Below are positions 7,247 through 56,273 of a DNA stretch of 64,000 nt, piece after piece. Origin of the DNA: Hippopus hippopus. Lineage: Eukaryota > Mollusca > Bivalvia > Cardiida > Cardiidae. The stretch's first letter is position 1, and every line of letters starts with the position of its first letter. A program made the translations under genes and the position numbers. The DNA lies in NCBI GenBank assembly GCA_946811185.2, contig OX328099.1, positions 71,056,714 to 71,120,713 of the forward strand, written 5' to 3'. A model generated the notes under the pieces. The model worked only from the letters and a program-made list of their open reading frames with translations. It was not told the DNA's origin and searched no databases.

Positions 7247-7309
7247 CTAATATTCATCATCTTCATCGTTCACGTGATTGACATCATCTTCTGGAGGTGC
7301 GAACCCTTC
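7247..7309 (-). CDS. MAPRE1: EB1 last coding exon (residues 245-264 and stop)
   Basis: After acceptor TTTTACAG it reads EGFAPPEDD and ends NDEDDEY followed by TAG at 7249-7247. The terminal aromatic residue after an acidic run is the EB family CAP-Gly ligand. A candidate AATAAA on the minus strand lies at 6815-6810. Between stop and signal sits family A copy A8, which would then be part of the 3' UTR. Confidence 0.93.
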   Translation of the reverse strand, partial: EGFAPPEDDVNHVNDEDDEY

Positions 7310-10300: not shown

Positions 10301-13300
10301 TAAAAAGACTAAAATGATTTCGATCTTTCAGTTATGTTTGTCGTCTGCAAATGCTTTCTATCTGGACGAGTCTAAAATTTTGTTGTTTGGTAAAGAGTTA
10401 AGCAGAAGAGGGCCATGATGGCCCTGTATCTCTCAACTGCCTAATGAGTGTGCATACGACATGTAACTGACATCAACAGTTATTAAATTGTATGATTGAT
10501 TTATTGAATGATGCTTAACGCCGTTTTCAACATTATTTAAGGTATATTGTGGCGGCCAGTGCACTTATCCATGCTTTCCTGGAGTTTCTTTGACCAGTAC
10601 TACACAAAATATTCTTTCCAAGCCACTGGCTTCTTTCCCACATAACCATCGTAGAAAAAATGATCAGCCCTGAAAGAGGAATGAATCCTGTCGAAATGAC
10701 TATCATAAATCCTCCAAAGAAATTTGCCAAGCTGCGGATTAAACCAGCGACGCCATTTCTCAAATCCTGTATGCTACTAACTGAGCTACAGGGGCTCAGA
10801 CTTTAAACTGTAAGAAATCTGTACTGCAATAAAATTTCATTGAGAAAATAAACCTGGTATCCAGTATTTTCTCCTTTTACTACAATATTCCTGTTAGGGA
10901 ACTTCGGTCTATTTGTACAGATTTCATATTCGTCATTTGCAGATGCTGTTACTTTGGAAGAGTCTAAAACTTGCTGCTTAGGAAGGGGTAACCCTTTACC
11001 ATACAGCAAAATTTTACACTCAGCCATGTTAAAGGAATTCACAGACAACAGAAAAAATGTTTTTGAAATGATAGTCCTTGTTCTTGAATAGGTAGAAAGC
11101 ATTGTTGGAAAAGGAGAAAATCCTGATTACCAGCATTTTCTCCTTTTCCAACAGTGCTTTCATAAGCGTTCTTTCTCGGGGTTGTCAAAACTCGGGATTG
11201 TGTGGCAAAGATTTAAACAACATATATGTATTTTCATAAGAAGCAAGGGTTTACCTCCGTTGCATATAATATTTCCAATATCTTTCTGTTGTATTCGGCC
11301 TCCTCATCTTCTTGACATACCATCTCAATATCCCGTAATTTACCGAAGTAAAAGTCACGTTCCTTCTCCAAACCTTCAACCGTGACCTTCATCTCTTCCA
11401 ACTACGAGGGAAAATGTCAAATTACAAGTTTATGTAATCTAATCCTCTACCAAACAATAAAGTGTTTTTACTATCCGTTAGGACAGTTTGTTTGTAGTAT
11501 TGGAGTTTAACTCGTTAATGAATGACAAAACTTTAGACCAAATTAAAAGCATTTGCAGGCTAAAAAAAAAAATAATAAAAATGAGGATAAAATGATTATT
11601 TCTGTCTTTGATAGGGTAGAAAACATTGTGGGAAAAGGAAAAAAAAGCTGGTTACCATCATTTTCTCCTTTTCCCACAATGTTTTGACAAGCCTTTTTCT
11701 TCAGGTTTGTTGAAACAAGGGATTGTGTGGTAAAGAGTTATTGCCGTTTTTACAGCTTAGGTCATATCACTGCTGTCAGTGCACCTCCATGTGTTTCATG
11801 GCTTTCACATACCAGTACTGACATAACTTTCTTTGCAAGCCACTGACTACTTTTCTCACATGCATCAGAGGTGAGAGACGAAAAAGAAAGTTTGCCTCAA
11901 TGGGGTATTGAGCTCCCAACCACCAGGTCACAAGTCAGATACCCTAACCACTGAGCTATTAGGACCCCTAGGAAAGAGGCTTTTGAAACACAGGTATTCA
12001 ATATGACTTGATGGTTAAAATTTAAGCCCACTAGCTGCCAAATGTAAACAATTGGGGATCAAATTGCAGACAGATCAAATTCATACGATTTAAAATGTAT
12101 TGTCTGTTTTAGGCAATATAGTGGAAACCAGTATTTTCTCCTTTTCCCACAATGATTTTTACCCTTTCACAAACTTCTAAGCATCTTTAATTTTACCCTT
12201 TCAAAAACTTCTAGGCATCTATAGCTCTTTACCAAGCATGAAAATATTTAACTTATCTGAATGAAATAATTAATTGATTGGTTTTATTGTGTTTAATGCC
12301 CTTTTCAACATCACTTTAGTTATACCATGGCAGCCAGTGCACCTACTCATGCTTTTGAACTTTCTTTTACTAGTACTTAGCACAATATTCTTTCCAAGCC
12401 ACTGACTGCTTTCCAACATAACAATCAATGAAATAATAATCAGTCGTGGGAGAGAAATGAATCCTGTTGCAATGAATATCATCAATACAAAAATTTGTTT
12501 TGCTGAGGATTTGAACCAGCGACCTGTTCTCAAGCCTGTAGACTACCAACTGTGCAAGCAGGGCTCCGCATCTAAATTAAAAGGCATTTGAAGGTGATAG
12601 ATCAAATGTGGCTCTAGTCAATGTTTATTTTTTTATGGCAGGTAAGAAAACATTAAATTTTGATATGATAGGAATCTTTCAGAATTATCTCCTTTTTCCA
12701 CAATGTTTTCAAAAGCTATTAGGGGTCATTACAAGAAAGGATTATTTGGGAAAGGGTTACTTCGTTGTTTGCAAATGCATTCAATACGAGGCATGCTCTG
12801 TGAAAAGGGAGCTTACTGCACCTGCAAAAAGTATCGATGCAGGTCAGCCTGACCTGGGCCAAAACTTTCAGCTATCGGCCAATTTTCTGCATATCAAAGG
12901 ACCAATTTACTTCATCATTCAGTTGTTTGTTAGACAAAATGGATTTTATAGATCCCTATTTATGTGATTTCTTTCTTGGTACAAAGCATTACGAAGATGC
13001 GTTAAGCCCCCTTTTACCAGAGCATGAAATGAGCCAATTTTTTTTAATGTCTGGTATAAAGCAAAGGGTTTGATATACCTGTTGTGTGAGCTGTTGTATT
13101 CTGGCACTATCTCCAGCACCCTGGCTACCGACTGGAGCTCTCTGGGGTGCAACATGTACAGCGGGCTTAGATTGAGCTGGGCTTTTTTGTGTAGTAGTCG
13201 TTCTGGTTGAAGCAGTAGCTGAAAATGATACACACCCCATTTCATTTCAAATATTCAATTACTCTGAGCATTAATATTAACATGAAAACAAATTATCAAC

Positions 13301-16300
13301 ACTGAAGATTTTCTATCAAAAAAAAAAGGCTTGATTTCACAATATCCATTATGTTACCATGCAGTCTGATAATCAAGGGAGATAAATGGTAAAAACCTAT
13401 CTGTACCAAGTATACAAGTCATGATTTATTTCCCTTGATCAGTGTAAGACTTAACTAGAGCTTGCTATGATCGGTATTAGGTCAAGCCAATAGCAGGCAT
13501 ATTCTTTGCCAGATAAAAAATATATACAGAAATCTGAAAGAGGTCCACAGAAAGATCATTTATCCCAATTTATGGAGAATTCCAAGTGTGGTTTTGGAGA
13601 AGTTTTTTTTTTTCTTTTAATTCAGTATTTTTCAGTATTGTTGCAATAGCAACTAGAGTTTCCAATGGAATCATGAAAGGAATTCTGAAGAGCACCACTG
13701 TAGGTTTCCTTCTGTGAAGTTTGGTCAAAATAGGATAGGTAGTTTGAGAGAAGGAGATATACAAAATAAAAGTTAACACACACATGATAGACACAGGGCC
13801 ATGTCAAAATTTGCAGCTAAAAATCAATCCAAAATATGTAAAAAAACAGCTTACTCTTTCTTGGTTGAATATTAGATGTCTTAGTTTCTGGACCTAACTG
13901 AATCCCGTCTCTGGCCGCCACTGCATCAAAATCTTGCCCTTGGTAGTTCGCATCGAAAAATTTCTTAAACCACTGAACAAACTCAAAATTATCTTGAAAT
14001 TTTCCTTTCACCAGTTTTTCCACAGGTATAATCTGTTAGAACAAATAGAAATGTCATATCAATTTTTGTTTTCTACATGCTTGATAATTCACAGAAAGAA
14101 AATGTGTATGGCATTTCTCATCATTAAATTTTGTAAACATTTTAGCAAAGCTCTTCTTTTTTTAAAAAAAAAAATATTTACGGTATAAAAAAATATGCAG
14201 GTCATTTAAAAAGGTTTTATTTCTCATTTCAATTAAACGTATATATTTTTACTTGCAAACTTGAAAGCAATTAAGATGGAGTATGTAATTTGAATTATCC
14301 ATTATCATGTACATGTCTTGAATACGATTTATCAAAGTCAAAATCCAGAGCTTCATAATTATGTGTGAAAATGACAAATCCATATACTTTATGCTAACTA
14401 ATAAATATTTAAATCATCATAGTTTTAATCTTTACAAAATGACAAAATTTTAGACTGGTCTGAATTCAAAGCATTTGCAGAGGACAAACTGTTGCATAAA
14501 GTAGGAAATTTTTCTTCTGAAGGAGTAGGAAACATTGTGGGAAAAAGAGAAAATGCTGGTTACCAGCATTTTCTCCTATTCCCACAATGTTTCCAAAGTC
14601 CTTTTCAATAGATCGTTAAAACTTGGGATTGTGTGGTAAAGGGTTAAAATCTTTGGGTTTTTGTAACTTTGATTTCGAACAGGGTTCATTGATCGCAAAA
14701 TAATCAAACTGAAAAAATTCAGCAAGTCCCTTAAAGTTGGGCTTTTCACAATCTTTGCTTTCTCTACACTCTTTCTTTTCATAAACTCTTTCTTTTCATA
14801 AACTGGAAATGGCCAAATAGAATTTGTAGTATGTAGATAGACAGGCTGTTTTTAACAATATCAAAAAAGCTACCTCAAGTAACACAGGAGATTGGAGAAA
14901 GAAAACATGGAAAACAAGTAGCAATCATATGCTAAAAGCAGTTGCTTCTTTTCCAAACACTGCTTACTGCAGGGGGGGGGGGGGGTGGGTTAAAAAAAAC
15001 TCCCATTTTTGTTAAAGAGGATATTTAGATCAAGCAAGGTAAGAAAATCCCTCCACGCCAGAGAAAATGGAAAACACCACAACCTTAGAGAACAAGATGC
15101 ATGTATACGTATTACTTTTTATGAAAAGAAGGATAAATTCAGCGGTATATATGCCAGGCAATGTATATATATCTATATCTATTTAATGTATAGGAGGATA
15201 AATTCATGAATATATTTTATGCCAGGTAATGTAAGGTTGTACATTAGAGTCAAGTTTAGCATTTCAAAAATTGAATTTCATCTCCCATGACATAGAAACC
15301 TTTCTTTTAGCCTTAACCTTGCAAGGCAAAGAGACTTACACACTTCACTGAACCATATTAAGATTATTCTCTAAAGGTTTCATTTGTCACAGAGTAACAG
15401 GAAAAATACTCATCTACATATTTCAACATTCATCTCTTTACCAAAGAAATTAAGTGTTGAAATATGTTAACTACAACTTGCAGACAATGTGATTTGTTTG
15501 TATAGCCATTTCCAATATTATTTCAATTATAACAGAGCGGCCAAGGCACCTGTCCAAGCTTTTCTGGAGTTTCTTTCACTAGTACTTCACATAATATTAT
15601 TCCCAAGCCAATAACCATAGCCAGAACAAAGTTCAGTCATGAGAGAAGAATGAATCCAGCAATGACTATCATAAATCTTCTGAAGCAGACAATATGAATG
15701 TGGCTCGACTGATGGTTTTGTCTTTGAAAAGGAAAGGGAAGATTACAATTATAATTCACAAGTCACTTCTAACATACCGTAAGGTAATCCTAACCGAACA
15801 AACAATCTACCAACTTACCAAACAAACCCAGGCTTTTATTAACCTTTGCCCACAATGATTTCAAAAGCTGTCCTTGGTCATGAAAAAATGGGCTTCTTCA
15901 GCAATAATTACCAACTAATCGAACTTGCTCCATAAATCATTTACTTGTCTTCTAAGCTTCAATTCTTATCAAAGATGACTGTATTCATAGATCACACCAA
16001 ACCTTTTACCCATTATCATACAGGCTGTTTCATGACATGCTACAAATTTGTTTAAAAGGTGTTTTACGCTTCCAACAGTATTTCAGTTTAATCAGAGTAA
16101 TTAATGAGAGCATTGTGTGTTAGTGCCAATGCTCGGCTGCAGTTGCTTTTAAATATATATTGATTTTTAGTGGAAATTTCAAAGTTGAACAAGAGCATGG
16201 CATGCAGGTGCCAAACTCAGCTGCAAGTGCTTGATTTTCAGTGAGAATCTGAAGTCAAAAAAGGGGCATAACTATGTCAAAAATATTTTGATGGTTACAT

Positions 16301-19300: not shown

Positions 19301-22300
19301 TTACATGAACTGAACTGGCTGGTGCTGGTAGTACGTTCGAGACAACTCTCCGTCACGACGTGTCTACCTACCTTATCTATGCCGACTTTGTCAAAAGCTG
19401 ACTGTAATAACTTGAAATTCTGTATACATTCATGTTCTAATTTTGTATTAAATTTGCATTTTTTTAATGGTAGAGTACCTGCAAGAAAGCAAACAAAGAA
19501 AAATGAAAGAATCAAAGATGTTAGTACTTAATTATTTAGACAAATATGCCTGTAAAACAAGTGATGTTGTGTTATGCAATACATGCTAAAGAGGTTTACA
19601 AAGGGTATAGTTTGGGCTTAGTACAAGGTCTTACCCTTTTTTTTTTATATTCTTATAAGTGAATTACTGGGATTTCACAGTGAATAACACAACTAGTGAT
19701 GATAAATATGGTATCATCACTAGTGATGATATAGTTTTTGAATGTTTGCAGGAACTACTTTTTTCCTATATTGCTCATATGATACCATTCTTGATAATTA
19801 TTAGAATGAAAAAGGGTGAATTAGGAATGTAATAAATAGGACAGTCAACTGGTTGTGTGTGATATTAAGAATCTGTCACTCGATTGGGGTTTGATGCGGT
19901 TAAAAAAACTCGTCCTTCGGACTCGTTTTTTCAACCGCATCACACCCCATTCTAGTAACAGATTTTTAACATCACACACAGCCAGTTGATTATCCTCTAT
20001 TTATTAAACTGCAGAGCATTACATCTATAGGCAAAAACTACCTTTACAAGCATATTTATCAGTCAAAGCTGTAAACTAAGAAGCACCTACCATATCACTA
20101 GAAAATTCTGTCTAGAAACAGATATGAGCATTACAAAAAGTCTGGACTGGATCAGTTCGACAAAAACTTTGGTTTGAAATTTAAGCCATAACCTGCTAAA
20201 TAAGTAAAATGAAACTTACAAGATGTTAGTAAAAACCCGAGTTTTGCTTCTTCAAAGGTATCTTCTAAGGAAAAATATCTCCTTATCAGACATTCTGTGC
20301 AGTCTGATTTTGACCTACACTGTCTGCAAAGGTCCTTGAGTCACACTAAGCAGCCAAAGATTATTTATCATTTAATAATCACTTCAGTAACACCTATACC
20401 TTTACAACTTTTATATCATGGCCTCAGTTCCCTACATAATTTCTGAAACATCATTCAAAATGCAGAAATGCACCGATAACTAATTCATTTGCAAATACTT
20501 TTTTGTCTTCTAACTTCACAAACTAAGTACATGGTCATTGGTTAGGCCCACTTATATCACCTAATGTCCCTGTTATCCCAGGTAATATACTGTACTGAGC
20601 CCAAACCAGGAAAAACAGAGGCTATATTGCAAGCTGAAATATGAACTTTGACATCACTATGCGAGAGAAATATATAGACAGAGAGAGAATTCAAGATCTT
20701 CTTTTTAGTTGTTGAAATTTCAGCAAGTTTTCCTCTTAACTTAAAATCTTTGTCTAGCCAAATTCATTTACATTTTTATTTTTTTCTTTTAAAACCTTTT
20801 ATCTTATGTAGGCAAATTTTGAAACATGTACAGCAAGTAATTTTGTGTACATGTACAGCAAGTAATAAACATGTCATTTTTATCTAAAAAACGAAGATTT
20901 GTCTTCATTTCAAATAGGTAATTACATTATTAGAGAATTATTTTTGAATACCATGTTTTATTCAAAAGCTTCTTTCATTTTGAATCTACTATTAAAAACT
21001 TTATACTGTATGCTGTGTTAATATGGCAAAAGGGGCTGATCATAATAAAAATCCAGTAACTCTGATATCAAATCACAGGCAGAAACTATCAATCATAAGC
21101 TAACAAGAATGGCAAAGTTTCTCATTATCTTGCAATACAAACTCATACATATTCTACATATAGTTAACAGCACAAAGGAAGACCGCAGATTAATATTTTA
21201 CATACAAGGTTTTGTTGTGTGCGTAATTGTTCCCCCCTAATATGTGCAACTTTATTCACATCTTTTTTTTTCCCAAACAAAGCATACCAAACGAAAAACA
21301 GCAACTACTTGAAATCAAATATAAAGGTGATTGTTTTATGAGCCAAAGAAAACAGGGATGAATGATATCGTGAATTTACTATACTCAACATTTAGACAAC
21401 AGTGAAAAAAATGGCTTTGTGACACTAGGCAAAATACTGGCACATATTTTTACTGGGGACAATTTTACTCATAGCTTAAGAATTGTGGGACAACTTGTAT
21501 GAAAATAAATGGATAGATTACTGAATATTCCATTTATATTTACTTCCATGTTAATTTCTTTTTTTTTTAATTGGAATAGTCAGTAATCTCCATCAACCCT
21601 TAGGCTGCTAATTGCGACTCAGTGACCTTTTGCGGACAATGTAGATCAAGATCAGACTGCACAGAACGTGCAGTCTGAACTTGGATCTACACTGTCCAGT
21701 AAGGAGCTACTATTCCCCAAAACACGACCCTGAAATAGCAGTAATTATTTGGTTTTTACTATTCCCCAAAACATGACCCTGAAATAGCAACAATTATTTG
21801 GTTTTTACTATCAAATTGAAAATTTTCAATTTGGCAATTTAGCAGGATAAGGGTTGAAAATGCAGCTACAGCTATCTAGTCTTTCTCATGCTGTATCACA
21901 TGCCTCCATGGTTAATCCCAGTAATAAGTCTCCAAGCCTCTGTAGAATTCATTCATTAATAAAGAATGTATCAGATAAGAGAATTCCAGTTTCATTCAAC
22001 TATAGTGCCCTGATAAAACATCAGGGTCAGGATGCAATTAATGGAATAAAAATATTGGTCATCATACTTCCTTTTACATTTTTTTTTCTATTTTTCTATT
22101 TTGAAATTTTAGTTTTCAATTCGTCTCACGAGAAGCAAAATATAAGTGTCCAAATTCACCAACAAGAGGTTCACAAGGGCATAACACACTCTACTGACCA
22201 TATATTTTAAAAGATGTCAAGCAAATTTATCTATTCAAATGGCTCTTTTCTTACAATTAGTCACTAGTCCCTGAAAATACTGAAAGTCTTAGATAATGCA

Positions 22301-25300
22301 TTACTATCTGTGTTAGTTTTCAAAAAATCAAGTTAAACATGTGGACTTGCTGGACTGTATTGTATAAACCAAAAATATACTCTACATGTACGATATGTGT
22401 CATATTATGTAATAGAAAACTCAAAACTATACACTGCTTCTTATAATAGACTTGAGATTTGACAATAAAACATTCCAGCATAAGTGTAACAGATCAGAAG
22501 ACATTAATGAGGACTTAATGGCATAAACCTAAATGTAGACCACCCTCAATGAAATACGGACATTATAATAGAACAAGAGCACCACATTCACGGGCCAAGG
22601 TTTAATCTTTTTGTAAAAATTCTATGTTGAAAAAGGGGCATAACTGTGTCTGCAATATTTTGATGATAATCTGCCCTTATGGTATGGGTTCCCTTTTTTT
22701 TTCTTTAAGTTAAGAACTTGTCCTAGTTTGAAGCAATTATCTTCAGTAACAAGAGAGATATTTTAAAGTGTTGAAGTTTTAGCATGCAGATGCAGACAAC
22801 ACAGACAACAACAGGGCTATGACAAGAACTCCATTTTTCTTTAAAACAACCAACCAAAAATGGAAGATGGACAAATGTACGGACAGAAACCATTTGACAG
22901 CAAAGGCTCTTCTGGCTTTAAGTCAGTAGAGCTAAAAAGATATCTTGGAGCAATTCAAGTCCTACAAGAAACTGGAAACAATTTATGAATAATATTCTTT
23001 TAAGTTACAAAACAAATTGAGGTTAGAATTAACATTTAACTGACTTCAAACTTATTACAGTGATGAAGAACATGTGTCATTAGTCCATAAATACAACAAG
23101 TGCTGGGCAGAAATATCTCCCTACTAACACCTCACCTTATCCACGGCTTTTTTCCTGAATGCGTTTTGTAGTAGCTTGAAATTTTGGATTGACTCATGTT
23201 CTAATTGGGTTTGAAGCTTAACTTTTTTAACAGGTAAACATCCTGTAATTAGGGTTAAAACAGTTAATTATCCCTCTACCAAACAACCCTGAAAAAGGAA
23301 GCTTTTGAAAACATCATGTGAAAAGGAAACTGCTGGTAACCTGCTTGCTCTGTTTCCCAAAGTGGTCTCAATCAAATAAATCTGAACAAAATTCAATTCA
23401 TCATCTGCAAATGCTTTCAATATGGAAGACTCTTAAATTCTATTGCCTGCTATTAGAGTTCTTCAACATACATCAACATAAGTCCTGAGTGGGTTTCATT
23501 TCCACTTACAGAATCAAAATTTTAATGTTTTAAGTGTACATAATAAAATCATATTTTCAGTTTTTATGCCAACTGTTTTTTCTTTATTCTATTAATAGTT
23601 TGTGGATAGCTTTTATCTAAAGTACAGGATACCTGGCATCACATCATATTAGTGATCCCTGACCTTAACCCTAGCCAAACAATACTGTGTTTTAAGAAAA
23701 CTGAAGAAAAAGACTTGAAAACATTGTGGGAAAATGCTGGTTATCAGCATTTTCTCTTTTTCTAACAATGTTTTCTACTCTTTCAAAAACAAATCTAATC
23801 ATCAGAGCAGCATTTTATCTGCATATGCTTTCATTTTAGACTAATTTCAATTGTTGATGTTTGGTAAGAGTTACATAACATCCCAAACTATGCAAGTTCA
23901 AGACTGTTTCAGCCAAAATGTCAATATATCTGGCAAGGTCAAGGTCAAAACTGCATTTAAGGGGCAGTCTTGTCTTGATCTACACTGTGTACAAAAGCAT
24001 AAAATAGTTCTTGGAATTTCAAGGGTAACACGACGATAACCATATCTTTAACAGATCTGTAAAACAAACACAATACATGTAGCTACAAAGGTGAAGCAAC
24101 CTGCAATTATAATACATATCAGTAATACATGTATAAGGGGAAACCAACACTTGCATTACAGGTGACATTAACCCATTATCATACAAATAAGACTTTATGT
24201 CCATGATGTTGAAAGCTTTTGAAACCATTGTGGCAGCAAGAGCAAGTCCTTGTAACAACTAACTGCTCAAATTACCTCATTGTTTGCCATATCCTAAAAA
24301 AGTCACTTTTCTTTTCTGTCCAATACCTCTCTTTTGTGTCACTTCAATGTCTATAAATGCACTGTAGTGTATGCTAATGGGTTGAGTCATGCATAGCAAT
24401 ACAGGTATAGTGATCCCAAAATTTGGCTTAGCTTTCCAACAGAAACTTGCTGGCCATTTTCTTATTCTGAATTATTCCTTTACCGAGTGTGTAACCCCAA
24501 TTGCAAAGGGACAAGTCCCATTGAGTAAATAGGCAACACCATTAACCTGTTAATAAAGTATGACTGATTGGTTGATTGTTTATATTGTTTTAAGCTGTTT
24601 ACAACATTATTTCAACTATATTACAGCTGCAAGTGCACCAATCCATGCTTTTCTGGTATTTATTTTTATCAGTACTTCTTACAGTCTTCCAAGCCACTGG
24701 CTGTTTTTTCCCACATATGTATCATGGAAACAATGATCATTTCTGAGTGAGGAATGAATCATGTCATAATGACTATCATGAATCGAAAGAAACTATCCGA
24801 GCTGGGGATTTAAACCAAAAACCGTCTGGTTTAAAGTCCTGTATGCTACCAACTGCTATACGGGGGCTCGGCAAGTATAATAGAGTATGTTTGAATCAGA
24901 CTGTAACAAGATGTCTGTTTGTAAAACAGTCATGCCCCCCTACTGCCACATTGATACAGGAAGTGGCACAGTTCATAAACTGATATCAAAAGAATTGATT
25001 GGGAAATATCGATGTCATCTTTTTGATTTATAGCCCACTTCAATTGTTAAACGTGATAATCTGTCAACAGTTCGCATAATTATACACACCGCCGTGTATA
25101 TACATACAAGATTGTAAACAGTCGCCAATACACAGACTGGGTTATCGATTTTCTTTTCGGCACACACGTTCGACTTCCGCTTTTTCCCAGTCAACTTCGA
25201 TGCTTACTACGTCCCAGATAATACGCGAATAAAATGTTGGAGCCACAAGTTGAGCCACATATGATGATTTTTGAGACACTTTAATTTTTTTGAGCAAATG

Positions 25301-28300: not shown

Positions 28301-31300
28301 AAACTAACCTGCCTTTTAACTCTTTACCCCAACCATAAAATTTTAGACAGCTCCAAATTCACAGCATTTGCATACGACAAGTCCGTATCTCTCACAGGAT
28401 TGTATGTCTTAAATAGGATAGAAAACATTGTAGGGAAAAGGAGAAAAAGATTTTTTCTCAGAGTCATTAAAACTCAGGATTGTGTAGTAAATGGTTAATA
28501 ATTTGACTGGTCTCCCAATACATGCTGCTGCCAACCCAACAGAAAACACAATGACAAATGGAAGTATCGATATACCATGTAACCCTTAACAAAACAGTCA
28601 AGCTTTTAGGACCCTGAGGAGGAAGGCTTTTGAAGACATTGTAGGTGGAGAAAATGTACGTAGCAGGCATTTTCTTCTCTTCTCGCAATGTTTTCTACCT
28701 TTCAAATTGTCAAATTTAATCCTTTGAAACACATTTAACCCTTTACCAAACAATGCCGGGTTTTCACCACCCTGAAAAAGAAGCTTTCTGAAAACATTGT
28801 AGGAAAAGGAGAAAATGCTGGTAACCAGCATTTTCTCCTTTTCCCACAATGTTTTCTTTCCTTCCCAAAACAAATTTCAATTTTTGAGTCACATTAATTT
28901 TGTCGTCTGCAAATGCTTCCAATTTGGACTAGTCTAAAATTATGTCGTTTGGTAAAGAGTTAATTTGGCAAACTGCAAATACTTTGAATTGGACTAGTCT
29001 AAACTTTTGTCATCTGGCAAAGAGTTAAAGAATCACTAAATCTAAATGAGCCATGCTCTGGTAAAAGGGGGGGTTTAACGCTTTCTCAAACGACAAATTT
29101 TAGACTCTTCCAAATCGAAAGAGTTTGCTGCCGACAATGTTAAATTTAATAAAAGAGGTAAAAAGTTGTCTAAAAGGGTAGAAAACATTGTGGGAAAAGG
29201 AGAAATTGCTCGTTACGAGCAATTTCTCCTTTTCCCCCAGTGTTTTCAAAAGACTTGTACTGCAGACACGTAAAAACGCGGGTTTGTTTGGGACAGGGTT
29301 AATACAGATCCTTGATGCATTATACCAAGCAATTCATCACAGTATTATGGTTCATAAAATCCATTTTGTAAAATAGCTGACTGAAACATGAGGTACACAA
29401 TGGCCCCTTGACATGAAGGAAGTTTACCAAAAGCAAAAGGTATCGACACAGGTCAGCTTGCGTGGACCGCACAGGCCTTCCTGGGTCGATACTTTTTGCA
29501 GATGCATTAAGCCCCCTTTTCACAGAGCATGGCTCAAATATTTTTGTGCACTGAAGAAAAGAAGAGCATTATAATTTTATGAGCAATGATACAAAGTTAA
29601 GGATAGGGCACCCTAATGGGATTCGTGTAACATTGCCTTTCATCGCCGAAAAACATACAGATTCGGCTAAGACAAGGGTAATCCATAATCGATTGGCCAA
29701 TAGACGCTGGTTCCCCGCATTGATTTCGGACTACCCGAGTCTTGGTACCATATTTTAGTGATGAAAGGCGATGTTACATGAATCCCATTAGGGTGCCCTA
29801 TCCTTAATGAGGATATTCCTCAACATGAATGATTTGCGTAACATTTTGTTGTTCCATATTTTCTGTTCTCTATTGCAAATTGATTTCAATGAACCTTTTA
29901 CCAAACAATCCCTTTTGATAATGACCCTTGAGAAGAAGGCTATCGAAAACATTGAGGGAAAAGGAGAAAATGTTAGTAAACAAGCAGTTTCTCCAATTCC
30001 CATGTTTTATACTCTTTCAAAGATAACATTTGATCTTTTGAGCCACAGTTAATTTGTTGTCTGCAAATACTTTCAATCAGGAGAAGACTTGACTGCATTC
30101 CAGGTTTGGTCTTAACTTTTTTACCACAGAATCCTGAGTTAAACAACCAAGAGGAAGAGCCGCTTTGAAAACATTGTTAGAAAAGGATAAAATGCTGGTA
30201 ACCAGCATTTTCTCCTTTTCCCACAATGTTTTCTACCCTTCAAAAAACAAATTTCAAATTTGAATCACAAACAGTTTGTTGTCTGCAAATGCTTTCAAAC
30301 CAGACAAGTTTTAAAAGATTGTTGTTTGATAAAGGGATAAAATACATTTGTCAAGGTCTAAAAGGCACCTTCTATTGCTCTTCAGTCTTAGCATTTAAAA
30401 TAACTTGAAGAAAAACTCTTTTTGATGTACATACCAGGAAACAAAATGTCCATAAACAGACAATATACAGCACCTGAAAAAAAAACCATACATGATTGAT
30501 TGATTGTATGATGCCATTTTCAACATTATTATAGTTATATTGTAGTGGCCAGTGCACCTATCCATGCTTTCCTGGAGTTTCTTTTACCAGTACTCTGCAC
30601 AATATTCTTTCCAAGCCACTGGCTGCTTTCCCACATAACCATCGTTGAAACAATGATCAGAGCTGAGAGAGGAATGAATTTTGTCGCAATGACTATTATT
30701 AATCCTCAGAAAGAAATCGGCTGAGCCGGGGATTGAACTAGTGACCCCATTGAGTCCTGTACGCTACCAACTGTGCTACCAGGGCTCGGCTAACATATAC
30801 ATGTATAATATCAGGGTTCAACATTAACATTTTTTTCAACTAGACCAGTGGACCAGTAATTTGAAATTTTTACTAGACCAGTTCAGATTTCTACTAGACC
30901 GTTTTTGCAAAATGAAAAAAGTGTATAAAATAGATCTAAATCTATGTTATTTCTCTTGCTAATATACCAAAATTGTTAAAAAAAAAAGAACAATGTCATG
31001 TTAAGTAATGATCAATGAATGTTTCTCCTTTAAGAATTTCAATTACAATTTCTTTTCCAGAAGAAAAAAATTAGACTAACCCATTTTGAAAGCAGTACCA
31101 GACACACATTTTAGTCTAACTTAGGCTCAAATAACAGAATTTGAGTTTAAAAGTACAAAACCATTGTGATATAATGTTATCAGATCCTTCAACAGATCTT
31201 CAGTTTATTAAACTGTCAGAGAAAACATGACATTTTCCTCTGGATCAAACAGAAACCAATGGCGCGAATTCAGCGTTCCACTCAAGGTCTAAAATGATAT

Positions 31301-32879
31301 TTTTTTCCTGTGATCTAGATCTAATATTATTCATCTAGATCTATTTTTGTTTCGATCCATTATGACTCTGCTTCTCCCCGATCAGATGTTGTTTTGAAGT
31401 TATGCAAGCTTGGCATATTCCCCGCTCGTCCGCTCCGTTGTCTATGTAAACGTCTGGGCGACTCATTTTTGGTTGTCGTCAAAATGAAACTACGGTATTC
31501 CAAGAAAAAGAGCTAGACATAGGAAATTCTTGCTTAAAAATTAAATACTCTGACAGAATTATAACAATCACGTTAAAAATTATGACATATCCTTGACGAC
31601 AAAATAGCCCGTGGACTCCAGTCGGTCTACTAAATCTATTTTCGGTTCGATTTGGTTTTTCCAGTGAAAATATTGATTACCGCGCATGCACGATCGGCTT
31701 CCTGTAGAAATGGTCAATAAATTGTCGCTCGTTGAACAAAATCACAAGTTATGTAAGCGATCTTTATCTACGAACGGCACGTTAGGTCGATTTTCGTCAC
31801 TTATGCCAAGCTTTAAAACTGGTACTTAATTAATTGTCTCAATTTTTGCACTAGACCATTCGGGCTAGCTGGACGCAGTCTCTACTAGCCCGAACCGATT
31901 TTTTGCTAGACAATGTCATTCGGACGTGCCTTAATGTCGAACCCTGAATATATGAGGAAGGTAATGTTTTTACTATTTTACAGGCAAGCCCTTAATGGCT
32001 TGATACAGCATACATGAAAATGAATGAAGGCCTTTGAGATACTGCTTCCATGAGGGAACAAGAAAATATATTTCTACACAGATGGTGAAGCCACACATGA
32101 AAATATTGAAAATTGGTGTAATGCAAAATTTCAGTTGATCAAACAAACAAAACCTATCTCTTGCAATTTTAACACCATTTCTGCAACAAAAATTTTATAC
32201 CAAATTGGATAGCGTAATTTACAGACCAGATTGCATGTGCGGCAGATTCTGATCTTGATTTAAACTGGACACAAAAACAATGAAAGTTACACTCTATGCC
32301 TTACTGGTTAACAACACTGAGGAAGAAGCCTTTTGAAAACATTGTGGGAAAAGGAGAAAATGCTGGTAGCCAGCATTTTCTCCTTTTCCCACAATGTTTT
32401 CTACCCTTTCAGAAACAAATTCTATCACTTGAGCCACATTTTCTCCTTTTCCCACAATGTTTTCTACCCTTTCAGAAATAAATTCTATCACTTGAGCCAC
32501 ATTAATTGTGAGCCTGTTGTCTGTAAATGCTTTCTACCTGAAATTTGTCCTTTGATAAAGAGTTAAATCTTTACCTCACAATCCCAAGTTTCAGTGATCC
32601 TGGGTATGAGGACTTTTGAAAATATTCATTTGTATAAATTTTCAGTTTGTTGTCTGCAGATGCTTTGAATTTGGACCAGTTCAAGATTTTGTGGTGTGGT
32701 GAAGAGTTAATACAAGATGAGATCAGACAGAAAGATTTGACAGCAAAAATGCGGATACCTGTACATAGTTGTTCAATCTTTGTATAATTTGTTTTTAAAC
32801 TGTCATTTATCCAAGCCAGCATGTCATGCCGACTCAAATTTTCTTGTGTGCAATTTGTGCTGAATACATTGACAGCCAT
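7247..32879 (-). CDS. MAPRE1: EB1 microtubule plus-end tracking protein, complete gene with alternative exon 3
   Basis: Spliced coding sequence on the minus strand: 32879-32759, 30475-30437, exon 3a 23242-23136 or exon 3b 19478-19372, 14032-13855, 13218-13079, 11401-11255, 7309-7247. The sum is 795 nt, giving 264 aa (human EB1 is 268), and all introns are GT-AG. Residues 1 to about 130 form the calponin-homology domain that binds microtubules, about 131-190 a basic Ser/Thr/Gln-rich linker, and about 190-250 the EB-homology coiled coil with the [13 protein letters not shown] signature that binds SxIP partners. The acidic tail ends DDEY, the EEY/F-type end that recruits CAP-Gly proteins. From family knowledge, EB1 dimers track growing microtubule ends and recruit other +TIPs. 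Exon 3 (residues 54-89) is present twice. Which vertebrate paralog it matches best cannot be judged by eye; a single-copy invertebrate EB1 is most likely. Confidence 0.93.
7392..9969 (-). mobile_element. Family B MITE, B5, split by a hAT element
   Basis: The left half (CAGCCATGCTCTGGTAAAAG to CACAGTTTTGAC, 7392-7558) and right half (GTTTTGACCCAGGTCACCTT to CAGAGCATGCC, 9873-9969) form one element once the insert and one target copy are removed. It lies in the last EB1 intron. Confidence 0.8.
7559..9872. mobile_element. Non-autonomous hAT-like transposon
   Basis: 2314-bp insert flanked by a perfect 8-bp duplication GTTTTGAC (7551-7558 and 9873-9880). Termini are TAGGGGTG and CAACCCTA. The left subterminal region is rich in ATCGATA-type motifs and the right in ATAGTATTGCAATAGT repeats. 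An 8-bp duplication, TAGGGGTGTAACGATAC-type end and repeated subterminal motifs are typical of hAT elements. No transposase frame is recognisable. Confidence 0.8.
10010..10115. mobile_element. Family H fold-back fragment
   Basis: AGTGTACAGCAAGATCAGAC and its inverted copy GCAGGCTGATCTTGCTTCAC around GCACATATGTGC. Confidence 0.5.
10171..10401 (+). mobile_element. Family A MITE, A9
   Basis: TTAACCCTATACCACACAAT to GGTAAAGAGTTAA, both ends intact. Its right end runs directly into a fragment of family F (GAGGGCCATGATGGCCCTG at 10408). Confidence 0.8.
10497..10799 (-). mobile_element. Family C tRNA-derived SINE
   Basis: The right end, read on the minus strand, begins CCCTGTAGCTCAGTTAGTAG (A-box-like) and carries GCGTCGCTGGTTTAATCC (B-box-like). 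The body contains GGCCAGTGCAC, CTTTCCTGGAGTTTCTTT and TTCTTTCCAAGCCACTGGC. It lies in the last EB1 intron. Confidence 0.75.
10845..10991 (+). mobile_element. Family A fragment, A10
   Basis: Second half of a copy only: one hairpin arm (CCAGTATTTTCTCCTTTTAC) and the subterminal CATTTGCAGATGCTGTTAC block. Confidence 0.5.
10988..11216 (-). mobile_element. Family A MITE, A11
   Basis: GTAACCCTTTACCATACAGC to GTGGCAAAGATTTAA. The hairpin is intact with AACAGTGC in place of ACAATG. It ends about 40 nt from the EB1 exon 6 donor. Confidence 0.75.
11255..11401 (-). CDS. MAPRE1: EB1 exon 6, EB-homology domain (residues 196-244)
   Basis: 147 nt, phase 0 on both sides, acceptor CCCTCGTAG, donor GTAAAC. 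It encodes [16 protein letters not shown], the coiled coil and hydrophobic groove that bind SxIP motifs, then the acidic loop and ILEILYATE. Confidence 0.95.
11485..11970 (-). repeat. Family D SINE-like element split by family A
   Basis: AGTATTGGAGTTTAA is interrupted at 11507-11741 by A12 and resumes as TTGCCGTTTTTACAGCTTAG. The tRNA-like part at the right (GGTATTGAGCTCCCAACC, ACCACTGAGCTATTAGG) is complete. Confidence 0.7.
11507..11741 (-). mobile_element. Family A MITE, A12, nested in a family D SINE
   Basis: TTAACTCGTTAATGAATGAC to GTGGTAAAGAGTTA. Removing it restores the family D sequence GAGTTTAATGCCGTTTTTA, with TTAA as the duplicated target (right copy TTAT). Confidence 0.8.
12090..12250 (+). 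mobile_element. Family A fragment, A13
   Basis: One hairpin arm (CCAGTATTTTCTCCTTTTCC) plus a small internal duplication TTTACCCTTTC..AAACTTCTA.GCATCT. Confidence 0.5.
12262..12569 (-). mobile_element. Family C tRNA-derived SINE
   Basis: GATTGGTTTTATTGTGTTTA tail, body with GGCAGCCAGTGCACCTACTC, and a tRNA-like head read from the right (CCCTGCTTGCACAGTTGGTA, CGCTGGTTCAAATCC). Confidence 0.75.
12588..12762 (-). mobile_element. Family A fragment, A14
   Basis: Subterminal AAAGGCATTTGAAGGTGATA and TTTTTCCACAATGTTTTCAA survive, ending GGGAAAGGGTTAC; the hairpin centre is deleted. Confidence 0.5.
12789..13035 (+). mobile_element. Family B MITE, B6
   Basis: GAGGCATGCTCTGTGAAAAG to CCAGAGCATGAAATGAGCC. 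The internal hairpin has lost one arm (GCAGGTCAGCCTGACCTGGG). It ends 44 nt from the EB1 exon 5 donor. Confidence 0.75.
13079..13218 (-). CDS. MAPRE1: EB1 exon 5, linker (residues 149-195)
   Basis: Acceptor CATTTTCAG and donor GTATAT bracket 140 nt encoding a Thr/Ser/Gln/Pro-rich basic linker and the start of the coiled coil (ARIQQLTQQ). Family B element copy B6 ends about 45 nt beyond the donor, inside the intron. Confidence 0.9.
13855..14032 (-). CDS. MAPRE1: EB1 exon 4 (residues 90-148)
   Basis: It begins [10 protein letters not shown] after acceptor CTAACAG and continues through the near-invariant [20 protein letters not shown], the end of the CH domain, then into the linker. Donor GTAAGC after base 13855; 178 nt, phase 0 in, phase 1 out. 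Confidence 0.95.
14425..14647 (-). mobile_element. Family A MITE, A15
   Basis: TTAATCTTTACAAAATGACA to GTGTGGTAAAGGGTTAA, palindrome at 14531-14593. Confidence 0.8.
14971..14985 (+). repeat. Poly-G tract
   Basis: About 14 consecutive G followed by TGGG, on an otherwise AT-rich background in an EB1 intron. Confidence 0.9.
15508..15690 (-). mobile_element. Family C SINE, partial
   Basis: GCGGCCAAGGCACCTGTCCA and TTCTGGAGTTTCTTTCACTA identify the body; the tRNA-like head is missing. Confidence 0.6.
15700..17155. other. EB1 intron 4 without recognised genes
   Basis: A family A fragment without hairpin lies near 15830-15890, the family E array at 16105-16690, and AT-rich sequence elsewhere. No exon-like stretch with matching splice phase was seen. 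Confidence 0.4.
16105..16690 (+). repeat. Family E, two or three head-to-tail partial copies
   Basis: The 5' block (TGCCAATGCTCGGCTGCAG) occurs at 16120 and again at 16208. The AAAAAGGGGCATAACTATGT block is at 16258 and a related one at 16480. The end block with GGGCTATGGCAATAACT / GGGCTATGACAATACCT occurs twice. This is the longest family E array here; it lies in an EB1 intron. Confidence 0.6.
17160..17174 (+). repeat. Poly-C tract
   Basis: About 15 consecutive C, the strand-reverse counterpart of the poly-G tract 2.2 kb away. Confidence 0.9.
17256..17483 (-). mobile_element. Family A MITE, A16, well preserved
   Basis: TTAACTCTTTACCAAACGAC to GGTAAAGGGCTAA with a palindrome of about 66 bp (17361-17430) lacking mismatches in the stem. 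A good reference copy. Confidence 0.85.
17758..18868. mobile_element. Family F element with 144-bp tandem core
   Basis: Starts GAGGGCCATGATGGCCCTGA followed by GCTCACCTGAG, and ends CATGCTCAGGTGAGCTAAAA, so the ends carry GCTCACCTGAG in inverted orientation. Between them the block TGACCTAGTTTTTGACCC recurs at about 17929, 18067, 18211, 18356, 18501 and 18645, a period of about 144 bp. The last unit is followed by GACGGACGACACACGACCGACG. No coding capacity. Confidence 0.8.
18906..19133 (+). mobile_element. Family A MITE, A17
   Basis: TTAACCCTTTACTACACAAT to GTGGTAAGGGGATAA, hairpin slightly shortened. It lies 240 nt from alternative EB1 exon 3b. Confidence 0.8.
19372..19478 (-). CDS. MAPRE1: EB1 exon 3b, alternative version (residues 54-89)
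   Basis: Acceptor TTTCTTGCAG, donor GTAGGT, 107 nt, with the same phases as exon 3a 3.7 kb upstream. It encodes [13 protein letters not shown] and ends GIDK, closer to the vertebrate GVDK. It keeps the Lys at human position 66 (NTKLEHE) but has Asp where exon 3a has Arg after SAF. The frame is open and conserved throughout, with no sign of decay, which argues that it is used. Confidence 0.9.
19690..19730. repeat. Short perfect inverted repeat
   Basis: CTAGTGATGATA, an 8-nt spacer, TATCATCACTAG, followed by another TGATGATA; between EB1 exons 3a and 3b. Confidence 0.6.
19831..20006. mobile_element. Long hairpin, probable fold-back MITE
   Basis: Arms AACTGGTTGTGTGTGATATT / ACATCACACACAGCCAGTTG extend outwards to AATAAATAGGACAGTC / GATTATCCTCTATTTATT and inwards to AAAAAACTCGTCCTTCGGAC, with the loop within TCCGAAGGACGAG. 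It lies in the intron between the two EB1 exon 3 versions. Confidence 0.75.
20010..21590. other. EB1 intron between exons 3a and 3b
   Basis: AT-rich. A family H half element is at about 20280-20345 (TCAGACATTCTGTGCAGTCT), and TGTACAGCAAGTAATAAACATG-like direct repeats at 20826-20868. No additional copy of exon 3 was recognised. Confidence 0.4.
21593..21857. mobile_element. Family H fold-back MITE, complete copy
   Basis: TCAACCCTTAGGCTGCTAAT at the left and its diverged complement AGCAGGATAAGGGTTGA at the right. The inner hairpin is TGTAGATCAAGATCAGACTG against CAGTCTGAACTTGGATCTAC. An internal direct duplication of about 63 bp is present (ACTATTCCCCAAAACACGAC at 21709, again at 21758). Confidence 0.7.
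22572..22935 (+). repeat. Family E, copy in EB1 intron
   Basis: Begins AGAACAAGAGCACCACATTC and runs through GAAAAAGGGGCATAACTGTG, the CTTCAGTAACAAGAGAGATA block and CAGGGCTATGACAAGAACT. It lies just downstream (plus sense) of a repeat-poor intron stretch. Confidence 0.6.
23136..23242 (-). CDS. MAPRE1: EB1 exon 3a, alternative version (residues 54-89)
   Basis: Acceptor TAATTACAG, donor GTGAGT-like (GTGAGG), 107 nt, phase 1 in and phase 0 out. It encodes a version of the last CH-domain helices containing [13 protein letters not shown] and ending AVDK. At the position of human K66 it carries Gln (QTQLEHE), and near human K83 it carries the basic run RKK. It shares about 24 of 36 residues with exon 3b. 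Both versions join in frame to the same neighbours, so they are alternatives and not successive exons. Confidence 0.9.
23266..23460 (+). mobile_element. Family A MITE, A18, degenerate
   Basis: AATTATCCCTCTACCAAACA start; hairpin reduced to AAAAGGAAACTGCTGGTAAC. It lies 24 nt beyond the acceptor of EB1 exon 3a. Confidence 0.6.
23665..23873 (+). mobile_element. Family A MITE, A19
   Basis: TTAACCCTAGCCAAACAATA to TTGGTAAGAGTTAC; one hairpin arm is shortened (ACATTGTGGGAAAATGCTGG). Confidence 0.7.
24165..24262 (+). mobile_element. Family A fragment, A20
   Basis: CATTAACCCATTATCATACA followed by AAGCTTTTGAAACCATTGTG; no hairpin partner. Confidence 0.4.
24562..24872 (-). mobile_element. Family C tRNA-derived SINE
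   Basis: GATTGGTTGATTGTTTATAT tail, body GCAAGTGCACCAATCCATGC, and a tRNA-like head from the right (CCCGTATAGCAGTTGGTAGC). The B-box region (TTTTGGTTTAAATCCCC) has decayed. Confidence 0.7.
24893..26328. mobile_element. Family G element with 158-bp tandem core (pearl-like)
   Basis: Left end AAGATGTCTGTTTGTAAAAC then CATGCCCCCCTAC; right end TTCGTTGAAGGGGGGCATAA, giving a GGGGGGCAT inverted terminal motif. The core holds six units, each with CACTGTGACCTTGACCTTT, at about 25351, 25509, 25667, 25816, 25974 and 26132. The period is 158 bp, with one unit 9 bp shorter. The last unit runs into CCGACCGACCGACGGACCGA. Tandem core plus a GACC/GACG tetranucleotide is the described layout of bivalve 'pearl' elements; the assignment is from memory. 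Confidence 0.8.
26756..26834. mobile_element. Short fold-back sequence
   Basis: The arms CTAAAACCTGTGTTGTAGGT and GTACCAACAACATAGGTTTT continue inwards as ACTCATTAGA / TCTAATGAGT around a 20-nt loop. Confidence 0.65.
27154..27346 (-). mobile_element. Family A MITE, A21, hairpin deleted
   Basis: TTAACTCTTTACCAAACAAC to TTTGGTAAAGGTTAA; the central palindrome is gone (GTAAGAAAACATTTTCAGAAG). Confidence 0.7.
27488..27552. mobile_element. Family H fold-back fragment
   Basis: GGTGTAGATCAAGATTAGAC and GCAGCCTGATCTTGGATCAA arms only. Confidence 0.5.
27893..28118 (+). mobile_element. Family B MITE, B7
   Basis: GAGCCAAGCTCTGTGAAAAG to CCAGTGCCTGGCTC, palindrome around GTCAGCCTGTGCAGTCTGCG intact; a stretch of about 40 bp after TTTTTGCTAT is deleted. 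Confidence 0.8.
28316..28498 (-). mobile_element. Family A MITE, A22, one hairpin arm deleted
   Basis: TTAACTCTTTACCCCAACCA to GTGTAGTAAATGGTTAA; only GTAGGGAAAAGGAGAAAAAG remains of the centre. Confidence 0.7.
28583..28736 (+). mobile_element. Family A MITE, A23, right end lost
   Basis: TTAACAAAACAGTCAAGCTT start and a diverged hairpin; it is cut by A24 at 28735. Confidence 0.6.
28735..29026 (+). mobile_element. Family A MITE, A24, with duplicated right tail
   Basis: TTAACCCTTTACCAAACAAT to GGTAAAGAGTTAA at 28963, then a second copy of the last 63 bp ending GGCAAAGAGTTAA. Confidence 0.8.
29048..29535 (-). mobile_element. Family B MITE, B8, split by family A
   Basis: GAGCCATGCTCTGGTAAAAG is interrupted at 29075 and resumes after 29302 with TACAGATCCTTGATGCATTA, ending GAGCATGGCTC. 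The break is at the TTAA of the family B GGGCTTAATGCAT motif, the same site as in B2. Confidence 0.85.
29075..29302 (-). mobile_element. Family A MITE, A25, nested in B8 with TTAA duplication
   Basis: Starts TTAACGCTTTCTCAAACGAC and ends GGGACAGGGTTAA. TTAA is present at both junctions while the uninterrupted family B sequence has one. The hairpin loop reads GCTCGTTACGAGC, a compensated change on both arms. Confidence 0.88.
29597..29808. mobile_element. TTAA-flanked MITE with long inverted termini
   Basis: TTAAGGATAGGGCACCCTAA at the left and TTAGGGTGCCCTATCCTTAA at the right. The arms stay complementary for about 45 bp (to GCCTTTCATC / GATGAAAGGC). The single copy here has internal sequence unrelated to families A or B. 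Confidence 0.8.
29891..30110 (+). mobile_element. Family A MITE, A26
   Basis: AACCTTTTACCAAACAATCC start, diverged hairpin (GTTAGTAAACAAGCAGTTTC), right end merged with A27. Confidence 0.65.
30112..30340 (+). mobile_element. Family A MITE, A27
   Basis: TTAACTTTTTTACCACAGAA to TTTGATAAAGGGATAA; 97 nt from the EB1 microexon donor. Confidence 0.75.
30437..30475 (-). CDS. MAPRE1: EB1 39-nt microexon (residues 41-53)
   Basis: The acceptor TTTTTCAG and donor GTATGT bracket exactly 39 nt. They encode [13 protein letters not shown], matching GAAYCQFMDMLFP of other EB1 proteins. It enters and leaves in phase 1, so skipping it would keep frame but delete a core CH-domain helix. A SINE (family C) begins about 12 nt beyond its acceptor. 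Confidence 0.92.
30487..30788 (-). mobile_element. Family C tRNA-derived SINE beside the EB1 microexon
   Basis: TGATTGATTGATTGTATGAT tail; tRNA-like head from the right: CCCTGGTAGCACAGTTGGTA and CACTAGTTCAATCCCC. The tail starts 12 nt beyond the microexon acceptor, so the branch point region of that intron is within or next to the SINE tail. Confidence 0.8.
30812..31946. mobile_element. Possible hAT-like element with CAGGGTTC termini
   Basis: Ends CAGGGTTCAACATTAA and TTAATGTCGAACCCTG are inverted over 16 bp with one mismatch, 1135 bp apart. Subterminal blocks ACTAGACCAGT.GACCAGT and GACCATTCGGGCTAG / CTAGCCCGAACC recur. Flanks share AATAT only, so the target duplication is unclear. No transposase. 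It lies in EB1 intron 1. Confidence 0.6.
32300..32566 (+). mobile_element. Family A MITE, A28, with internal duplication
   Basis: The hairpin at 32335-32400 is followed by a 63-bp unit present twice (CATTTTCTCCTTTTCCCACA at 32374 and 32438 with ACCCTTTCAGAAA.AAATTC). It ends TTGATAAAGAGTTAA. Confidence 0.75.
32563..32710 (+). mobile_element. Family A MITE, A29, hairpin deleted
   Basis: TTAAATCTTTACCTCACAAT to GGTGAAGAGTTAA, sharing the TTAA with A28. It ends 49 nt from the donor of EB1 exon 1. Confidence 0.7.
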
Positions 32880-55639: not shown

Positions 55640-56273
55640 AGTCTTCACCAAAGGACAAAATTTTAGGATTGTCCAAATTGAAAGTGCTTGTAGATGACAG
55701 ATGAAAATGTGGATCAAATGGAGAACATGGTCTTTGAAAGGGTAGAAAACATTATGGAAAAAATGAGAAAATACTTTCCAGCATTTTCTGCTTTTCCCAC
55801 TATGTTTTCTACACTTTCAAAGACAGTTTTCATCATTTCAGCCACATTTAATTTGTCATCAGCAAATGATTTGGATTTGAACAGGTCCATAATTTTGTCA
55901 TTTGGTAATGGACTTTGGCTTTTGAAAACATTGTCGGAAAAGGAGAAATGCTGGTCACCAGCATTTTCTCCTTTTCCGGCACTGTTTTCTTCACTTTCAT
56001 AGACAATTTTCTCCTTATAAGCCACATTTAGTTTGTCATCAGCAGATCTGGATTTGAACAAGTCCATAATTTTGTCATTTGGTAATGGACTTTGGCTTTT
56101 GAAAACATTGTGGGAAAAGGAGAAAATGCTGGTAACCAGCATTTTCTCCTTTTCCCGCAATGTTTTCTACACTTTCATTGACAATTTTCTCCTTATAAGC
56201 CACATTTGTCATCAGCAAATGATCTGGATTTGAACAAGTCCCTAATTTTGTCATTTGGTAATGGACTTTGGTA
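55640..56273. mobile_element. Family A cluster with 177-bp tandem amplification
   Basis: A minus-type left end (CTTCACCAAAGGACAAAATT) leads into the hairpin at 55745-55810. Then the block ATTTTGTCATTTGGTAATGG recurs at about 55890, 56068 and 56245, a period of about 177 bp. Complete hairpins lie at 55927-55992 and 56100-56166. Three right ends and no matching left ends indicate tandem duplication of one copy. Confidence 0.75.

What the first reader, a model, noticed from the sequence alone, without database searches (positions are those of the whole stretch)
19372..23242. Tandem, mutually exclusive exons in EB1 that swap the microtubule-binding face of the CH domain
Two exons, 23136-23242 and 19372-19478, encode alternative versions of residues 54-89. 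Both are exactly 107 nt, both enter in phase 1 and leave in phase 0, and both have good GT-AG sites. They share about two thirds of their residues. Including both adds 214 nt and skipping both removes 107 nt, and either breaks the frame, so exactly one must be used. The swapped segment holds the basic residues that contact the microtubule lattice in vertebrate EB1. Exon 3a has Gln where human has K66 and a basic RKK run near K83; exon 3b keeps K66 but has Asp near K83. This predicts two isoforms differing in end-tracking or lattice affinity. I am not aware of this arrangement being described for mollusc EB1, but cannot search.
Basis: partly seen in the sequence, partly recalled or inferred. 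Interest (0 to 1): 0.88.

Follow-up and report, generated by a model that had tools for sequence, protein, structure and literature searches.

The report
Two alternative EB1 microtubule-binding exons
A mollusc-like gene for EB1, a protein that rides growing microtubule ends, carries two alternative copies of one exon and so can make two versions of its microtubule-binding domain; tube worms show the same arrangement, and oysters and clams appear to.

Summary
A complete 264-residue EB1 gene lies on the minus strand. Exons 3a (23242-23136) and 3b (19478-19372) are both 107 nt, phase 1 to 0, with GT-AG sites, 24 of 36 residues identical and under purifying selection (pN/pS 0.29). Using both or neither gives an early stop. 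One correction: exon 2 ends at 30435, not 30437.

The genome search found three exon-3 copies: this pair and a single 107-nt copy in a second EB gene. The tandem pair also occurs in the tube worm Lamellibrachia and in two unnamed annelid-like sequences. Molluscan EB1s with nearly identical flanking exons differ sharply in exon 3. One or several origins: unresolved.

"Swaps the microtubule-binding face" is too strong. Three contact positions tested in yeast Mal3 (EB1 H69, K76, K89) lie in this exon and are the same in both versions. K66 and K83 were not shown to be contacts. No RNA evidence was available for this species. Six searches of an open-licence library found no description.

The parts
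32759..32879 (-). EB1 coding exon 1 (121 nt, residues 1 to 41; an AG just upstream of the ATG suggests a 5' UTR intron)
   Evidence: gene model and match to EB1
30435..30473 (-). EB1 coding exon 2 (39 nt); its donor precedes either exon 3
   Evidence: corrects the quoted 30437
23136..23242 (-). Exon 3a, upstream version of residues 54-89 ([36 protein letters not shown])
   Evidence: strongest donor of the gene, weaker pyrimidine tract, by a rough scoring
19372..19478 (-). Exon 3b, downstream version of residues 54-89 ([36 protein letters not shown])
   Evidence: TACTAAC about 46 nt upstream and 14 of 17 pyrimidines before the AG
13855..14032 (-). EB1 coding exon 4 (178 nt), rest of the CH domain
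13079..13218 (-). EB1 coding exon 5 (140 nt), linker
11255..11401 (-). EB1 coding exon 6 (147 nt), coiled coil and EB1 C-terminal motif
7247..7309 (-). EB1 coding exon 7 (63 nt with stop), acidic tail ending in EY

Best explanation
Exons 3a and 3b are an old tandem duplication of the 107-nt exon that encodes residues 54-89 of the EB1 calponin-homology (CH) domain, spliced in a mutually exclusive way. Shown: the anatomy, the frame arithmetic, purifying selection, the single copy in the second EB gene of this genome, and the same tandem pair in Lamellibrachia and two unnamed annelid-like sequences. Inferred: because 107 is not a multiple of 3, messages with both or neither exon meet a stop 557 or 421 nt before the last junction and should be destroyed by nonsense-mediated decay, so productive mRNA carries exactly one; 3b, with the better acceptor, is the likely default and 3a the regulated choice. 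Both products keep the tested microtubule contacts (H69, K76, K89) but differ at 12 positions around them, including the charge at 83. I expect both to bind microtubules, with different affinity or sensitivity to the state of the lattice, not an on-off switch.
For: Equal length, phase and splice sites; pN/pS 0.29, Fisher p 4.5e-7, no stops; stops at codons 94 and 68 if both or neither is used; both isoforms score as CH plus EB1; three exon-3 places found in the 1.07 Gb genome, two of them here; paralog exon 3 single, 107 nt, same phases; tandem pairs in P0056 and P0213 and P0215 (35 of 36 residues in the +1 frame, score 187 against at most 76 in 600 random windows); exon-3 divergence far above flank divergence in molluscs, with an oyster control. 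Intron-free contigs of 1238 and 1406 bp encode full EB1s (P0040, P0019) with different exon 3 but 91 of 93 flanking CH residues in common, which suggests that both versions are transcribed in some bivalve group (inference).
Against: No transcript of this species was examined. Isoform pairs of a single mollusc species were not seen side by side, because the database is clustered at 90%. A single origin of the pair is not supported by the trees. No RNA-pairing device was seen (15 comparisons). The charge difference at 83 is not kept in clam-like rows. Splice-site strengths rest on a rough matrix recalled from memory.
Confidence: 0.86

Rival explanations
1. One copy, more likely 3a, is a rarely used or decaying duplicate, and only the other makes protein.
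For: 3a is the more divergent from the CH profile (44.7 against 50 bits) and from recalled human EB1 by tblastn (50.4 against 56.6 bits); its acceptor has fewer pyrimidines (11 against 14 of 17). No RNA data.
Against: 3a is open over 36 codons, has the strongest donor by the rough score, and the pair shows pN/pS 0.29; 79% of random mutation sets would contain a stop; paired versions persist in other animals.
Confidence: 0.08
2. 3a is a regulatory (poison) exon: the purpose of the duplicate is to produce the double-inclusion message with an early stop and so lower EB1 levels.
For: Double inclusion gives a stop at codon 94, 557 nt before the last junction.
Against: 3a keeps a full CH-compatible sequence, the same phases and the tested contact residues, which a poison exon does not need; skipping alone would do the same job.
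Confidence: 0.06
3. For the molluscan relatives only: the two exon-3 versions in oysters and clams belong to separate genes, not to alternative exons.
For: This genome does have a second EB gene; the comparisons are between species or unnamed records.
Against: The second gene differs along its length (exon 1 71%, exon 4 73%), whereas the discordant oyster and clam-like pairs share 91 of 93 flanking CH residues; the annelid-type pairs lie within one predicted protein each.
Confidence: 0.12

Closest known systems
Tandem-duplicated mutually exclusive exons in general (criteria in PMC3923563, abstract and passages seen)
   Same: Neighbouring homologous exons of equal length, same splice sites and same reading frame; all four met here
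   Different: Exclusive use in RNA not shown here; this gene was not named in the main text of the five exclusive- or duplicated-exon papers searched for it
U2AF1 exons 3/Ab (PMC5224494) and OGDH exons 4a/4b (PMC7969005), start of abstract in a search listing only
   Same: Duplicated exons used alternatively in a core gene, with unequal splice signals
   Different: Other genes; mechanisms there are known, here only the frame constraint is shown; no distant branch point was tested for
Arthropod EB1 with the next exon (exon 4) duplicated
   Same: Same gene and same domain; 37 of 318 collected proteins, all with arthropod names, contain two exon-4 motifs
   Different: Another exon, adjacent to this one; the merged models may be annotation errors and use in RNA was not examined
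Vertebrate EB1, EB2, EB3 (separate genes; general knowledge, EB1 and EB3 structures listed)
   Same: Several versions of the EB CH domain in one animal
   Different: Separate genes, not alternative exons

Membership tests
EB1/MAPRE family | N-terminal CH domain and C-terminal EB1 motif | tested here: met
   PF00307 and PF03271 above their cut-offs for both isoforms
EB1/MAPRE family | Acidic C-terminal tail ending in -EY/F | tested here: met
   ends in NDEDDEY; that this defines EBs is recalled
Mutually exclusive exons | Neighbouring exons of similar length and homologous sequence | tested here: met
   107 and 107 nt; 24 of 36 residues
Mutually exclusive exons | Same reading frame and compatible splice sites | tested here: met
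   phase 1 to 0, GT-AG for both
Mutually exclusive exons | Double inclusion and double skipping unproductive | tested here: met
   early stops at codons 94 and 68; decay of such messages is inferred
Mutually exclusive exons | Exactly one exon in mature mRNA | not testable with these tools
   no RNA reads of this species
RNA-structure-controlled exclusive exons (docking/selector type) | Pairing between intron elements near the competing exons | tested here: inconclusive
   15 comparisons of 300-nt flanks, z from -1.72 to 1.20 against 60 shuffles each; longer introns and conservation not tested
Swap of the microtubule contact face | Experimentally tested contact residues differ between versions | tested here: not met
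   H69, K76, K89 identical in both; contacts in the EB3 structures were not examined

The most novel reading that the evidence does not exclude
The exon-3 pair is an ancient EB1 splice switch that predates the split of molluscs and annelids: an upstream version with a basic residue at 83 and Ala/Ser at 86, and a downstream version without the basic residue and with Gly at 86. Arthropods would have reached a similar end by duplicating the next exon and vertebrates by duplicating the gene, so three animal lineages would have diversified the same microtubule-end sensor by different routes.
Probability: 0.4. Interest if true: 0.72.

Novelty: new member of a known kind. Interest (0 to 1): 0.56.

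Why it matters
EB1 is the core of the machinery at growing microtubule ends. A built-in exon switch in its microtubule-binding domain would give molluscs and annelids a way to tune end recognition by tissue or stage, and it offers natural paired variants that keep the tested contacts while changing their surroundings: a direct test of which CH-domain positions set affinity and lattice sensing. It also warns that EB1 gene models in these animals, and in arthropods at exon 4, can be merged or incomplete.

Tried and rejected
Single origin of the pair: trees of the 36 exon-3 columns are unresolved. AU tests do not reject the window pair as one clade (p 0.314), the four annelid-type rows (0.574), the Lamellibrachia pair (0.272), the five oyster rows (0.586), the eight clam-like rows (0.261) or a B clade against A (0.413). 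Pairing upstream with upstream against crossed pairing gives p 0.034 for window with P0213, 0.36 for window with Lamellibrachia and 0.005 for Lamellibrachia with P0213; the oyster and clam pairs were oriented by me, so their values (0.043 to 0.84 in seven comparisons) are biased or negative. I do not claim one origin.

RNA pairing between flanking introns: no signal in 15 comparisons. Splicing motifs were listed without a control and are not used. Steric exclusion is unlikely: 3657 nt lie between the exons. No tRNA or Rfam family in the window.

K66/K83 as contact residues: not shown in the passages seen; the EB3 cryo-EM paper that I looked for is not held. One passage names K66 of human EB1 as acetylated, ubiquitylated and crotonylated and lists K83 as modified (PMC10470552). 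The structure model (first row P0095, an oyster-like sequence) has mean pLDDT 57 and was used only for the rough place of a helix at 68-84. A first tally of H69 and K89 forced both residues through its own filter; I replaced it by an unforced tally.

Literature: searches had 0 papers; one search had 5; one search listed 20 of 52; one search listed 25 of 258; one search listed 4. Judged by title and start of abstract, none is about alternative exons of EB1. The library holds open-licence papers only.
Full report
WHAT IS THERE. The minus strand of the window carries a complete EB1 (MAPRE) gene. Coding exons are 32879-32759, 30473-30435, 23242-23136 (3a), 19478-19372 (3b), 14032-13855, 13218-13079, 11401-11255 and 7309-7247, with GT-AG introns. 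Either choice at exon 3 gives an open 264-residue protein with a CH domain and an EB1 C-terminal motif. An AG just before the start codon suggests a 5' UTR intron.

THE PAIR. 3a and 3b are both 107 nt, identical at 69 nt and 24 of 36 residues. The 38 differences fall 13, 7 and 18 on codon positions 1, 2 and 3. pN/pS is 0.29 with Fisher p 4.5e-7; random placement of 38 changes never kept 24 residues in 5000 trials and gave a stop in 79%. Synonymous sites are saturated (17.4 of 21.2), so the duplication is old; a repeat search of 19000-24000 shows no long repeat in register beside the two exons. The differing residues are 55, 58, 61, 63, 64, 66, 71, 80, 83, 85, 86 and 87.

FRAME. With both exons the first stop is codon 94, 557 nt before the last junction; with neither it is codon 68, 421 nt before it. 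By the usual rule for nonsense-mediated decay (established knowledge) both messages should be degraded. This enforces one exon per productive message but does not say how the spliceosome chooses. By a rough scoring matrix recalled from memory, 3a has the strongest donor of the seven scored (7.14) and 3b the next (5.9); the acceptor of 3b has 14 of 17 pyrimidines and a TACTAAC about 46 nt upstream, that of 3a has 11 of 17. I infer that 3b is the default and 3a the regulated exon. Flank-to-flank duplex energies show nothing unusual (15 comparisons, lowest z -1.72).

THE REST OF THE GENOME. The window lies in a 1.07 Gb genome of 34 contigs. The EB1 C-terminal motif was found at two places, here and on contig C6. 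The second gene has exon 1, exon 2, exon 3 and exon 4; its exon 3 is also 107 nt with the same phases (counted by eye), and tblastn at E up to 1 shows no second copy between its exons 2 and 4. A genome-wide search with the 3b peptide at E up to 10 returned three places: 3b, the paralog's exon and 3a. So the exon's length is older than the duplication, and a duplicate of such an exon could only be useful as an exclusive alternative (inference).

RELATIVES: ANNELID TYPE. Each of three protein searches listed its best 120 hits (of 4552, 1363 and 574), in all 318 different proteins. Two hold two exon-3 segments: P0056 of the tube worm Lamellibrachia satsuma, and P0213 from an unnamed 278,678-bp contig whose sequence resembles it. 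In a third, P0215 (unnamed; its text is close to Ridgeia P0214), one version is in frame and the other is hidden in the +1 frame, recoverable with 35 of 36 residues of the Lamellibrachia downstream copy; score 187 against a maximum of 76 in 600 random windows and 63 in 179 windows of the same protein. After the upstream copy of P0056, P0213, P0214 and P0215, and after the downstream copy of P0213, the next residue is Val, as a GT donor right after codon 89 would give. P0214 (Ridgeia piscesae) shows the upstream version only.

RELATIVES: MOLLUSCS. The database is clustered at 90% identity, which tends to merge isoforms that differ only in 36 residues, so the test is indirect. Among 39 molluscan rows (14 unnamed, assigned by sequence), pairs with flanking CH exons at least 97% identical have a mean exon-3 identity of 0.875, minimum 0.722 (14 pairs); among 264 other rows the figures are 0.979 and 0.917 (1340 pairs). 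Rows are related and some nearly identical, so pairs are not independent. C. virginica and Ostrea edulis share 34 of 36 exon-3 residues with flanks at 88 of 92; C. virginica and Magallana gigas share 26 of 36 with flanks at 91 of 93. The unnamed clam-like rows P0019 and P0040 show the same (26 of 36; 91 of 93); each comes from contigs of 1.2-1.4 kb that hold the whole coding sequence, hence probably spliced transcripts (inference). This is what two exon versions, sampled one per record, would look like. The second EB gene of this genome does not explain it, since its exons 1 and 4 are only 71% and 73% identical to those of this gene.

ONE ORIGIN OR SEVERAL. In the window, P0056 and P0213 the upstream copy has a basic residue at 83 and Ala/Ser at 86, the downstream copy a non-basic residue and Gly; the two oyster versions split the same way (sequences). 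But clam-like rows do not split cleanly, the exon-3 trees are unresolved and no AU test rejects anything, and parallel pairing reaches p 0.034 for window with P0213 but 0.36 with Lamellibrachia. A single origin before the mollusc-annelid split is possible, not shown. The flanks of the window's protein are nearest to the freshwater mussel Sinanodonta, at 85%, on a weakly supported tree; the mollusc label is likely but the species was not identified.

WHAT THE SWAP DOES. In Maurer et al. 2012 (PMC3368265; passages and one section read), Mal3 Y56A, K63D and K76D reduced binding and Q89 mutants altered end tracking. By alignment these are EB1 H69, K76, K89 and Q102. The first three lie in exon 3, are identical in 3a and 3b and are conserved in 318, 318 and 317 of 318 proteins (the exception is a gene model that departs from the family just before residue 89). 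K66 is Asn in 242, Lys in 71, Gln in 3 and Arg in 2; position 83 is Lys or Arg in 289 of 318 (arthropod-heavy). Of 30 segments without a basic residue at 83, 15 are from named molluscs or annelids, 13 from unnamed sources and 2 from fleas. Net charge of the segment is +5 for 3a and +3 for 3b. So both isoforms should bind microtubules, and the variation lies around the contacts. A low-confidence model of an oyster-like EB1 puts a helix at 68-84 between the two variable patches. The functional step is inference.

COMPARISON. Tandem exclusive exons are a well-known kind. The new points are the gene and the spread among animals. Arthropod EB1 models show another solution: 37 of 318 proteins, all with arthropod names, contain the next exon's motif twice. 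The searches named in Tried and rejected found no description of either; database annotation and subscription papers cannot be excluded.

VERDICT. Observation confirmed with one 2-nt correction; exclusive-exon reading held at 0.86; contact-swap reading weakened; breadth extended to annelid-type sequences and, indirectly, to oysters and clams.

Noticed in passing
P0001 to P0063 (37 proteins listed): Arthropod EB1 gene models contain the exon after this one (exon 4) twice in frame, with different sequences, which suggests a separate exclusive exon pair in arthropods.
   Followed up: partly
G000:C6, L004:5460 to L001 (exon 1 at L004:5460-5582, exon 3 at L004:9403-9509, exon 4 at L003:1221-1355): A second EB gene in the same genome with a single 107-nt exon 3.
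   Followed up: partly
window 25343-26264 and 17980-18769: Tandem arrays inside the introns upstream of 3a (158-nt unit, 5.9 copies) and downstream of 3b (145-nt unit, 5.5 copies).
   Followed up: no
window 11850-11990 and 12460-12580, minus strand: Two stretches in the intron between exons 5 and 6 look like tRNA-derived short mobile elements (box-like sequences seen by eye; no tRNA called).
   Followed up: no
window 55778-56271 and 32368-32503, and L001: A repeated element with CATTTTCTCCTTTTCCCACAATG-like sequence recurs in tandem rows and open frames, probably a small mobile element.
   Followed up: no
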